Shown piece after piece: positions 40,190-44,064 of a stretch of 64,000 nt of DNA. Source of the DNA: Kofleriaceae bacterium (GTDB taxonomy: Bacteria > Myxococcota_A > Polyangia > Haliangiales > Haliangiaceae); the NCBI GenBank assembly GCA_018057825.1, contig JAGPCY010000038.1:1-64000 (forward strand). The letters are read 5' to 3'. The first letter of the stretch is position 1. Each line of letters starts with the position of its first letter. A model generated the notes under the pieces. It was not told the origin of the DNA. It did not search any database and worked only from the letters and a program-made list of their open reading frames with translations. The position numbers were made by a program, and so were the translations under genes.

Positions 40190-40310
40190 AGCCGGAACAT
40201 ACCGCAGGGAGGAACCGCGAGGGCTACCCGGCGATCCCGGAGCCGGAGGATCGGCGGCGAGGCTTGCGGGGGCTCACCCCGCTCGGGCCGCGGTGCCGGC
40301 GGCGACCCGC

Positions 40311-40580
<270 letters not shown>

Positions 40581-40657: not shown

Positions 40658-41905
40658 ATGCTGCACAGCTTGCATCTCAAGAACGTCGGGCCGGCGCCCG
40701 AGATGCGCATGAAGCTGGCCCGCCGGCTGAACCTGATCACCGGTGACAACGGGCTGGGCAAGAGTTTCCTCCTCGATCTCGCATGGTGGGCGCTGACCAG
40801 GACCTGGGCCTCGCTGCCGGCGATCCCGCGCGGCGCCGGCGAAGCGACCCTGGGTGTCCAGTACGAGGGACAGACCAAGCCCCATGAATACGAGAGCCGG
40901 TACGATCGGCGCCGACAGCAATGGATCGGCAAGAAGAGCGGGCGCCCGGCCAACCCCGGCATGGTGATCTACGCTCGGGTCGACGGTGGCTTCGCGGTGT
41001 GGGATCCAGCGCGCGCGAGCGAGGCCGGCGACGCGCCGGGCTTCGTGTTCGATGCCGAGGACGTGTGGGACGGGCTCGCACGTCGCTGCAATGGGCTCGT
41101 GCGCGATTGGGCGACCTGGCAGCTGGAGCAGAAGGAGGCTTGGCGCCTGTTGCAGAACGCGCTGCAGGTCATGTCCCCATCCGAGGACGAGCCCCTGCGT
41201 CCAGGGGCGCTGACCCGGGTCAGCCTGGACGACCCGCGCGACATCCCGACGCTGCGCTTGCCCTATGGGGAGGTCCCGATCCTTCATGCCTCCGCCGGCA
41301 TGCGGCGGATCTGCGCGCTGGTCTATCTCCTGGTCTGGACGTGGATCGAGCATCAGCGCGCTAGCAAGCTGATCGATCAGCCGCCGACGGACCGGATCAT
41401 CTTCCTGGTCGACGAGCCGGACACCCACCTGCACCCTCGGTGGCAGCGCGTCGTGTTGCGCTCGCTGCTCAACGTCGTGCATCAGCTGATGACAAAGGGC
41501 GACGCCAAGGTACAGCTCATCGCGGCGACGCATTCCCCCCTGGTCATGGCGTCGGTCGAGCCGCTGTTCGACCCTGCCCACGACAAGTGCTGGCACCTGG
41601 ACGCCGACGGCGAGCTGGTTCACCTGCGCGAGGAGGCATGGGCCAAGGAGGGGGACGTCCTGGCCTGGCTCGCGTCGGCGACCTTCGGGCTCAAGCACGC
41701 GCGTTCCCTCGAGTCCGAGGTGGCGATCGAGGCCGCCGAGGCCTTCATGCGCGATGACCTACCCGCGCCGCAGCACCTGCGAACCCGCGCTGCGATCCAC
41801 GCCGAACTCGTTCGGCTCTTGGCCGGTAGCGACCCCTTCTGGGCTCGGTGGATCGCGTCCCAGGATCGCGGCCCAGCCGCGCGCTCACCGCGGCGGAAGC
41901 GATGA
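40658..41905 (+). CDS. AAA/ABC-type ATPase, possibly PtuA-like defence component
   Basis: This 415-residue ATPase of the OLD/SMC-related AAA group has Walker A GDNGLGKS at 29-36 and the signature-like LHASAGMRRICALVYLL. Walker B is FLVDEPDTHLHPRWQ (D252, E253), with a switch His in IAATHSPLVM. No TOPRIM nuclease domain follows. It overlaps by 4 bp a gene encoding an HNH-like protein. ATPase plus HNH nuclease is the arrangement of Septu (PtuA/PtuB) anti-phage systems, to which I compare it without asserting orthology. The gene uses visibly more A/T-ending codons than its neighbours, consistent with transfer, and sits right after tract R5. Confidence 0.85.
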   Translation: MLHSLHLKNVGPAPEMRMKLARRLNLITGDNGLGKSFLLDLAWWALTRTWASLPAIPRGAGEATLGVQYEGQTKPHEYESRYDRRRQQWIGKKSGRPANPGMVIYARVDGGFAVWDPARASEAGDAPGFVFDAEDVWDGLARRCNGLVRDWATWQLEQKEAWRLLQNALQVMSPSEDEPLRPGALTRVSLDDPRDIPTLRLPYGEVPILHASAGMRRICALVYLLVWTWIEHQRASKLIDQPPTDRIIFLVDEPDTHLHPRWQRVVLRSLLNVVHQLMTKGDAKVQLIAATHSPLVMASVEPLFDPAHDKCWHLDADGELVHLREEAWAKEGDVLAWLASATFGLKHARSLESEVAIEAAEAFMRDDLPAPQHLRTRAAIHAELVRLLAGSDPFWARWIASQDRGPAARSPRRKR

Positions 41906-42537
41906 GGCGCGTCCCGCCGCCCGCCGAGCCGCCGACCTTCGACCGGCAATGTCGACAGAAGGGTGCCGTGGCGCTCACGGCCTGGCGCCTCGCGGGCAAG
42001 ACCGGCCGGCCGCGCGACCTGTGGTCGCCGTTCCGCGAGCAGCTCCGCGACGGCTTCGAGGGACGTTGTGGCTACACGGCGATGCTGTGCTCAGGCGGAT
42101 CGGTCGATCACTTCGTGAGCATCAAGACCAACCCGGCGCTGGCCTACGAGTGGTCGAACTATCGATTCATCGAGGAGTGGGTCAACAAGAGCAAGCAGAA
42201 CCTCGATGGCGCCGTGCTCGACCCGTTCGAGGTCCACGACGACTGGTTCGAGCTCTTGTTGCCCTCGCTCCAGCTCGTCCTCACGAGTCGCGTGCCGGCG
42301 AAACACCGCGCGCGCGCCCAGCGGACCATCGAACGGCTACACCTGCGCGACGACGAGCGGATCATCCGCCAGCGGGCGAGCTGGCTCGCCGAGTACGAGG
42401 CGCGGCGGATCACGCTCGAGGGGCTTGATCGATACGCGCCGCTCCTGGCGGCCGCGATCAGGAAGCGCGACGCCGGGCGCGGCGCCCGAGGTCAGCGCGT
42501 GGCGACGCCAGGTGCGCGGAAACGCGCGCGGAGTTGA
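41902..42537 (+). CDS. HNH-like nuclease, partner of the ATPase (PtuB-like)
   Basis: This 211-residue protein starts at the ATG overlapping the ATPase stop. The central region resembles an HNH fold: CGYTAMLCSGGSVDHFVSI with D69-H70, then YEWSNYR with N86, then WVNKSKQN with N95 and K98. The usual paired zinc cysteines of PtuB-type HNH proteins are mostly absent (only C65-region and C72-region equivalents), so activity is uncertain. Basic ends (KRARS) suit DNA binding. Co-occurrence with the ATPase supports a defence role by inference. Confidence 0.75.
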   Translation: MRRVPPPAEPPTFDRQCRQKGAVALTAWRLAGKTGRPRDLWSPFREQLRDGFEGRCGYTAMLCSGGSVDHFVSIKTNPALAYEWSNYRFIEEWVNKSKQNLDGAVLDPFEVHDDWFELLLPSLQLVLTSRVPAKHRARAQRTIERLHLRDDERIIRQRASWLAEYEARRITLEGLDRYAPLLAAAIRKRDAGRGARGQRVATPGARKRARS

Positions 42538-42558
42538 GCCGCCGACCGCGGTGACGCC

Positions 42559-44064
42559 TCACCCCGTCGGGCCGCGGTGCCAGGCGGCGATCGCGGCGGC
42601 GTAGACCTGCTTGAGCGGAACCCGGTGGGCCTGGGCCGCGGCCAGGCAGGCGTCGTGCTCGGGGGCGGCGTTGACCACCTGGCCGGCGGCGTCGCGGGCG
42701 ATCTTCATCGCGATCGGTCCGTACTCGGTCGCCACCGACACCAGCGCGCGCGCCAAGGTCGTGCGCTCGACCGCGGCGAAGCGCACGCCGATGGTCGTGG
42801 TCTCGCGCAGGATCGCGTCGACCACCGCGGTCCGCGCCGCGGCTGGGCACAGGGCGGCGAAGGCCAGGGCCGGGCGCCCTTTCTTCATCACGATCGGCGT
42901 CCACCACGCATCGACCGCGCCGGCGGCCAGGGCGTGGTCGATCGCGTGGGCCGCCAGCTCCGGGGTCGCGTCGTCGAGGTTGGCCTCGATCAGCCACATC
43001 GCGTCGGAGGTCAGCGCCGCCGGCGCGACCGCGGTCACCCGGACGACGTTGGCGCGATCGGCGAACTCGGCGTCGCCCGCGCCCCAGCCGACCGCCACCG
43101 GCGTCCCGGTCGGCGCCGGGGTCCACGCCGTGACCGCGTGGGCCAGGATCGCAGCGCCGGTCGGGGTCGTGAGCTCGCGGGGCAGCCCGCCGCTGGTCAT
43201 CACGCCGCCACAGCGGCGCAGGATCTCGAGGGCCGCCGGCGCCGGCACCGGCAAGACGCCGTGGGCGCAGCGCAGCGAGCCGTGGCCCATCGCCACCTGG
43301 GCGCAGGTCACCCCGACCGGCGCCAGATACGCCAGCGCCGCCGCGGTGCCGACGATGTCGACGATCGAGTCGATCGCGCCGACCTCGTGAAAAGCGACGG
43401 ACTCCACGGTCGTGCCGTGGAGCGTCGCCTCGGCGACCGCCACGCGATCGAAGATGTCGAGGGCCCGGCGCTTGGTGTCCGGCTCGAGCGCGGCGCCTTC
43501 GATGCGCGCGCGGATCTCGGCGTAGTGGTGATGGGCGTGTTCGTGGCTGTGATCGTGGCTGTGATCGTGGCTGTGATCGTGGCCGTGATCGTGGCTGTGA
43601 TCGTGCGCGTGATCGTGATCGTGATCGTGGCTGTGCTCGTGGCCGTGATCGTGCCTGTGCTCGTGGCCGTAGTCGTGGCTATGACTATGGTCGGCCTCGG
43701 ACTCGGTCTCGGACTCGGCCTCGGACTCGGCCTCGGTCTCGGCCTCGGTCTCGGTCTCGGTCTCGGTCTCGGACTCGGTCTCGGTCTCGGTCTCGGCCCC
43801 GGCCCCGGCCTCCCCCCACACCGTCCCTCCCGTCTCGACCTTCACGTCCACCGCGGCGATCCCTCCCTTCACCACCCGCGCCACGCGGAGCCGCGCCGGG
43901 TCGACGCCGACCGCGGCGATCGCGTCTCGCACCACCGCCTCCGGCACGCCCAGATCGAACAGCGCCCCCAGGGTCATGTCCCCCGCGATCCCGCTCGCGC
44001 AGTCGACGTGGAGATGTAGCCCCCGCACCGCGCCCACCGCGCCCACCGCGCCCGCCGGGCTCAC
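42559..44064 (-). CDS. larC: LarC, nickel-pincer cofactor biosynthesis protein, with repeat insertion
   Basis: LarC inserts nickel into the pincer cofactor of lactate racemase and related enzymes. Evidence is [22 protein letters not shown] at the start, [20 protein letters not shown] in the middle and [13 protein letters not shown] and VMKKGRPA near the C-terminus. The protein is about 501 residues, longer than the usual 400-430. The extra length lies at about residues 80-180, a run of Glu-Thr/Ser/Ala pairs followed by a His/Asp/Ser/Glu-rich segment. His-rich linkers occur at this position in other LarC proteins and may hold nickel; the Glu-x run is the hexamer repeat. GTG 44064 overlaps the larB stop; GTG 44028 is possible. 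No larE or larA in the window. Confidence 0.92.
43535..43680 (-). repeat. 12-bp-type coding repeat encoding His/Asp-rich segment of LarC
   Basis: Tandem GTGATCGTGGCT-like units on the plus strand encode alternating His and Asp/Ser on the minus strand ([13 protein letters not shown] pattern). The segment lies directly next to the Glu-x hexamer run. It is probably a metal-binding linker that varies by slippage. Confidence 0.9.
43692..43808 (-). repeat. Hexanucleotide tract R6 inside larC coding sequence
   Basis: Nineteen or so units of GAGACC, GAGGCC and GAGTCC on the minus strand read in the larC frame as Glu-Thr, Glu-Ala and Glu-Ser. It is the only tract lying in a well-supported coding region. 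Because the unit is six bases, expansion or loss changes the protein by two residues and never shifts the frame. Confidence 0.95.

What the first reader, a model, noticed from the sequence alone, without database searches (positions are those of the whole stretch)
40658..42537. Septu-like ATPase/HNH pair bordered by a hexamer tract
Two genes overlapping by 4 bp encode an OLD/ABC-like ATPase and an HNH-like protein, the arrangement of Septu defence. The nuclease part departs from PtuB in its zinc cysteines, and the ATPase is shorter than PtuA as I know it, so this could be a variant type. Codon use differs from neighbours, suggesting transfer.
Basis: partly seen in the sequence, partly recalled or inferred. 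Interest (0 to 1): 0.68.

Follow-up and report, generated by a model that had tools for sequence, protein, structure and literature searches.

The report
Ordinary Septu antiphage gene pair
These two overlapping genes are a complete, recognisable copy of Septu, a known bacterial antivirus system (an ATPase plus a DNA/RNA-cutting HNH enzyme), newly inserted at one spot of this bacterium's chromosome; the features that looked unusual are shared by known Septu systems.

Summary
ptuA (40658-41905, 415 aa) and ptuB (41902-42537, 211 aa) overlap by ATGA. The reading as Septu is also right, but not as a variant type. PADLOC's own Septu type I models match both proteins end to end (PtuA E 2.9e-165; PtuB E 2.4e-64). 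AlphaFold models match solved Septu/retron PtuA and PtuB structures (PtuB Z 12.7-15.9; PtuA best hit is E. coli Septu). Three of four zinc cysteines are missing, but the zinc set is incomplete in all 102 relatives aligned and in the solved E. coli Septu PtuB. The HNH core (D/E-H...W-x-N...N..K/R) is invariant, so the nuclease is probably active and zinc-free. The ATPase length is normal for this clade (median 426 aa). In 78 of 80 relatives across many phyla ptuB follows ptuA; in 16 of 80 the pair sits beside BREX genes, a context a 2026 paper already describes. Transfer is well supported: the site is empty in all 7 relatives examined, the insert is bounded by a 33-bp duplication of the larC 3' end, and GC is low. 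The hexamer tract is a genome-wide repeat, not part of the system. Verdict: new member of a known kind. The target (tRNA or DNA) cannot be told from sequence.

The parts
40658..41905 (+). ptuA: Septu ABC/OLD-like ATPase, 415 aa; Walker A GDNGLGKS (29-36), Walker B FLVDE (D252, E253), H-loop H292
41902..42537 (+). ptuB: HNH nuclease lacking a full zinc set, 211 aa; catalytic-motif residues D69-H70, W84, N86, N95, K98; lone invariant C56
41902..41905 (+). ATGA overlap of ptuA stop and ptuB start; the same 4-bp overlap is found in 49 of 80 homologous loci
40273..40305 (.). left copy of a 33-bp imperfect direct repeat bounding the insert, a second copy of the larC 3' end
42558..42590 (.). right copy of the repeat: the real 3' end of larC (minus strand)
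40314..40580 (+). GAGACC hexamer tract lying inside the insert; a genome-wide repeat, not specific to the system

Best explanation
A complete two-gene Septu type I defence system of the PADLOC PDLC00307/PDLC00348 clade, gained by horizontal transfer into the gap between a histidine-kinase gene and larC. Shown here: gene order and overlap, family membership, fold, intact ATPase and HNH motifs, an empty site in relatives, boundary repeat. Inferred from solved and tested relatives: PtuA assembles into an ATP-controlled oligomer that holds PtuB; phage infection perturbs it; PtuB then cuts nucleic acid, either host tRNA (as E. coli B88 Septu and retron-Eco7 act on tRNA-Tyr) or phage DNA (as reported for E. 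coli ATCC 25922 Septu), and stops phage growth, perhaps at the cost of the cell. The HNH domain probably works with a catalytic metal alone and no structural zinc.
For: Full-length PADLOC PtuA1 (E 2.9e-165) and PtuB1 (E 2.4e-64) models; all 67 PtuB sequences scanned hit the same PtuB1 model. A profile of the PtuB family finds PtuB structures first in the PDB (E 2.6e-4 to 4e-3). AlphaFold PtuB, pLDDT 94.6: the eleven best Foldseek hits are all PtuB, VIA Z 15.9 to retron Ec78 and 14.4 to E. coli Septu over 182 residues. AlphaFold PtuA, pLDDT 89.3: best hit E. coli Septu PtuA, Foldseek E 1.4e-16. Conserved pair in 78 of 80 loci. HNH residues unchanged in 102 sequences. Empty site in 7 of 7 relatives and boundary repeat. 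Copies on plasmids and viral contigs and inside BREX operons. No reverse transcriptase on this contig. Tested relatives: PMC13096335 (Walker and HNH mutants lose defence; tRNA-Tyr cleavage) and PMC11555353.
Against: No member of this clade was found with a phage test. Pfam gives no hit to ptuB itself, so the HNH assignment rests on PADLOC, the PDB profile and the fold. Trigger and target are unknown, and the assembly was not modelled as a complex.
Confidence: 0.9

Rival explanations
1. The pair is a BREX accessory (backup) effector that has become separated from its BREX operon, and needs BREX parts to be triggered.
For: 16 of 80 relatives lie in operons with pglX and/or pglZ beside them; PMC12839542 describes OLD-ABC/HNH dyads as BREX backup effectors.
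Against: In the window the pair is alone between housekeeping genes, and 64 of 80 relatives show no pglX/pglZ within about 5 kb (some contigs are short).
Confidence: 0.06
2. It is the effector of a retron (Septu type II / retron I-A) whose reverse transcriptase was missed.
For: PtuA-PtuB pairs are the effectors of retron I-A; PADLOC's retron HNH_I-A model gives a weak hit (E 6.7e-5).
Against: The two reverse-transcriptase matches of the genome lie on other contigs, C43 and C12. PtuA is 415 aa, not about 550 as in retron I-A. The retron-specific NCBIfam models score far below cut-off. No retron RNA in Rfam.
Confidence: 0.02
3. PtuB is a dead nuclease: loss of zinc cysteines abolished catalysis, and the pair works in another way.
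For: Three of four zinc-ligand positions are not cysteine in ptuB.
Against: D/E-H, W, N, N and K/R are unchanged in all 102 relatives. The solved E. coli Septu PtuB lacks the same cysteines and is reported to act on DNA (cited in PMC11555353).
Confidence: 0.02

Closest known systems
Septu type I (PtuAB), PADLOC models PDLC00307 and PDLC00348
   Same: Full-length matches, gene order, overlap, lengths (415 vs 424 and 211 vs 198 model positions).
   Different: Nothing defining; the nearest named copy is 66% identical in PtuA (Myxococcales bacterium PRO3).
E. coli Septu, PDB 8ee7/8eea
   Same: Same folds; also lacks three of four zinc cysteines and keeps the first (CCYS).
   Different: About 16% sequence identity; PtuA of that structure is somewhat longer (chain of 465 aa).
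Retron I-A effectors PtuAB (retron Ec78/Eco7, Ec83)
   Same: PtuB fold, Z 12.7-15.9.
   Different: No reverse transcriptase or retron RNA here; retron PtuA is about 550 aa; retron PtuB has a CAYC zinc pair.
OLD-ABC/HNH dyads inside BREX operons (PMC12839542)
   Same: Same kind of pair between pglX and pglZ in relatives; that the published dyads are this clade is my inference.
   Different: The window copy has no BREX genes beside it.

Membership tests
Septu type I | PtuA: ATPase matching a PtuA model over its full length | tested here: met
   PDLC00307 E 2.9e-165, residues 1-404 to model 1-419 of 424; fold match to 8eea
Septu type I | PtuB: HNH protein matching a PtuB model | tested here: met
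   PDLC00348 E 2.4e-64, 1-191 to 1-192 of 198; PDB PtuB fold Z up to 15.9
Septu type I | ptuA directly followed by ptuB | tested here: met
   ATGA overlap; conserved in 78 of 80 loci
Septu type I | Walker A/B and HNH residues needed for defence | tested here: met
   K35, D252, E253 invariant; H70, N86, N95 invariant; requirement known from PMC13096335
Septu type I | no reverse transcriptase in the operon | tested here: met
   RT matches only on C43 and C12
Septu type I | protects against phage | not testable with these tools
   needs phage challenge
Septu type II / retron I-A | reverse transcriptase and retron RNA next to ptuAB | tested here: not met
Zinc-type PtuB (CxxC...CxxC HNH) | four zinc cysteines | tested here: not met
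   positions 56/59/91/94 read C-T-E-V; none of 102 relatives has more than two cysteines there; own-genome zinc-type PtuB on C38 for contrast
BREX accessory dyad | located within a BREX operon | tested here: not met
   flanked by histidine kinase and larC

The most novel reading that the evidence does not exclude
The PtuAB clade without a full zinc set is a mechanistically distinct Septu branch (own trigger and own nucleic-acid target) that shuttles as a bare two-gene cassette, inserted through short duplications of a host gene's 3' end and sometimes lodged inside BREX operons.
Probability: 0.12. Interest if true: 0.45.

Novelty: new member of a known kind. Interest (0 to 1): 0.25.

Why it matters
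It adds a clearly delimited insertion of Septu to a Myxococcota genome and shows, over 102 sequences, that HNH nucleases of Septu can keep their catalytic core while losing the structural zinc set, as the solved E. coli protein also does. That makes zinc cysteines a poor criterion for calling new Septu types. It is useful for annotation, not surprising to a specialist.

Tried and rejected
Variant or new Septu type: rejected, since existing PADLOC models cover both proteins and zinc loss is shared with PDB 8ee7. Retron: rejected. Hexamer tract as part of the system: rejected, about nine arrays in 64 kb and genome-wide. Short ATPase: rejected. Rfam hits in 40372-40483 are microRNA families far below gathering score on the simple repeat, chance. 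Search by single protein P0002 in genome and viral contigs found nothing; an alignment of PtuA found 80 and 31 loci. Flanking direct repeats at the second own copy (C63) were sought and not found, and at C38 only the hexamer tracts aligned. In one search my column numbering was off by four; corrected. Li et al. 2024 on E. coli Septu is not held in the library, so its DNA target is taken second-hand from PMC11555353.

Full report
Observation. Two genes on the + strand overlap by ATGA: ptuA 40658-41905 (415 aa) and ptuB 41902-42537 (211 aa). The same 4-bp overlap occurs in 49 of 80 homologous loci, and ptuB follows ptuA in 78 of 80, so this is a real, selected gene pair.

What they are. PADLOC's Septu type I models match both proteins over nearly their whole length: PtuA1 PDLC00307, E 2.9e-165, and PtuB1 PDLC00348, E 2.4e-64. 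Pfam finds only generic AAA_21/AAA_15 in PtuA above cut-off and nothing significant in PtuB. NCBIfam's retron PtuA/PtuB models match weakly and far below cut-off. A profile of 23 PtuB relatives retrieves solved PtuB structures first in the PDB. AlphaFold models are confident (PtuB pLDDT 94.6; PtuA 89.3). The PtuB model's eleven best Foldseek hits are all PtuB from retron I-A and E. coli Septu, with Z 12.7-15.9 on realignment and HNH domains of Cas9 well below at about 5. The PtuA model's best hit is PtuA of the E. coli Septu complex.

The zinc cysteines. In zinc-type PtuB the HNH domain carries CxxC and CxxCN, as in the own-genome copy on contig C38 (CAYCEKR...VEHYRPK...WENLLFACFACN). Here the four positions read C56, T59, E91, V94. 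Over 102 aligned relatives C56 is invariant, 59 is not cysteine in the residues listed, and no sequence has more than two of the four, the second being position 91 in 40 of them. The HNH residues (D/E69, H70, W84, N86, N95, K/R98) never depart. The solved E. coli Septu PtuB (8ee7/8eea) reads CCYSE...DYQNLAASALDS, i.e. it too keeps the first cysteine and lacks the other three. Why a lone cysteine is kept everywhere is unexplained.

Length. PtuA of this clade has a median of 426 aa (390-552), and most PADLOC PtuA1 models shown run from 386 to 455 positions. The 540-550 aa PtuA known from retrons is the longer form.

Distribution. The clade occurs in Myxococcota, Pseudomonadota, Cyanobacteriota, Chlorobiota, Planctomycetota, Acidobacteriota, Verrucomicrobiota, Thermodesulfobacteriota and others, with Myxococcota rows scattered over the tree. 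The nearest named relative is Myxococcales bacterium PRO3, 66% identity. Copies occur on plasmids, several typed mobilizable or conjugative, and on contigs classed as viral. In 16 of 80 loci pglX and/or pglZ of BREX lie beside the pair, some with GmrSD or another defence ATPase between. OLD-ABC/HNH dyads as BREX backup effectors are already described (PMC12839542).

Transfer. The histidine kinase upstream and larC downstream are adjacent in all seven relatives examined, from the same genus to the same order, with gaps of about 200-420 bp between the query matches against about 2.5 kb here. The insert lies between two imperfect copies of the larC 3' end, 40273-40305 and 42558-42590 (32 matched positions, two single-base gaps; none of 5,000 simulated pairs scored as high), and the whole genome has no third close copy. 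GC of the pair is lower than in 99.7% of equal-sized stretches of the window outside it. Other Septu genes of this genome have similar GC. The hexamer tract inside the insert is a genome-wide repeat (1,429 matches).

How it most likely works. Shown here: membership, fold, intact motifs, transfer. Inferred: an ATP-controlled PtuA oligomer carries PtuB; infection relieves its control, and PtuB cuts nucleic acid. Walker and HNH mutations abolish defence in E. coli B88 Septu, which cleaves tRNA-Tyr (PMC13096335); retron-Eco7 PtuAB depletes tRNA-Tyr while ATCC 25922 Septu is reported to attack DNA (PMC11555353). Which of these applies here cannot be decided from sequence.

Verdict.

Noticed in passing
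window 40273-40305 and 42558-42590: The insert is bounded by a 33-bp imperfect direct repeat copying the larC 3' end, with no recombinase gene inside; looks like an integration scar.
   Followed up: partly
L033 1474-1665 (contig C48:67160-67324, about 3 kb beyond the window): A 63-aa remnant of the start of another PtuA of this clade lies directly after a Mrr-like restriction gene, 25 kb from the intact pair; a decayed second Septu.
   Followed up: partly
L056 4834-6884 (contig C63): A second intact PtuAB pair without a full zinc set in the same genome, only distantly related to the window copy, so probably separately acquired.
   Followed up: partly
L057 3903-6022 (contig C38): A zinc-type PtuAB pair in the same genome, flanked on both sides by hexamer tracts.
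   Followed up: partly
window arrays starting at 4, 7862, 20088, 36084, 40314, 43691, 46628, 53887, 60397, and genome-wide: GAGACC-type hexamer tracts, about 100-340 bp, roughly one per 7 kb, some inside coding sequence such as larC; 1,429 exact 24-mer matches in the genome. Origin and role unknown.
   Followed up: partly
L062, L069, L076, L077, L081, L086, L088, L095, L097, L106, L109, L112, L115, L117, L121, L124: The PtuAB pair lies next to pglX and/or pglZ of BREX, sometimes with GmrSD or a second Septu PtuB (L088) beside it.
   Followed up: yes
L013 1333-3264: The PtuB match lies in a 644-residue open frame; not checked whether this is a fusion or a chance open frame.
   Followed up: no
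window 42067-42069 (PtuB C56): A single cysteine invariant in 102 relatives although its zinc partners are gone; reason unknown.
   Followed up: partly
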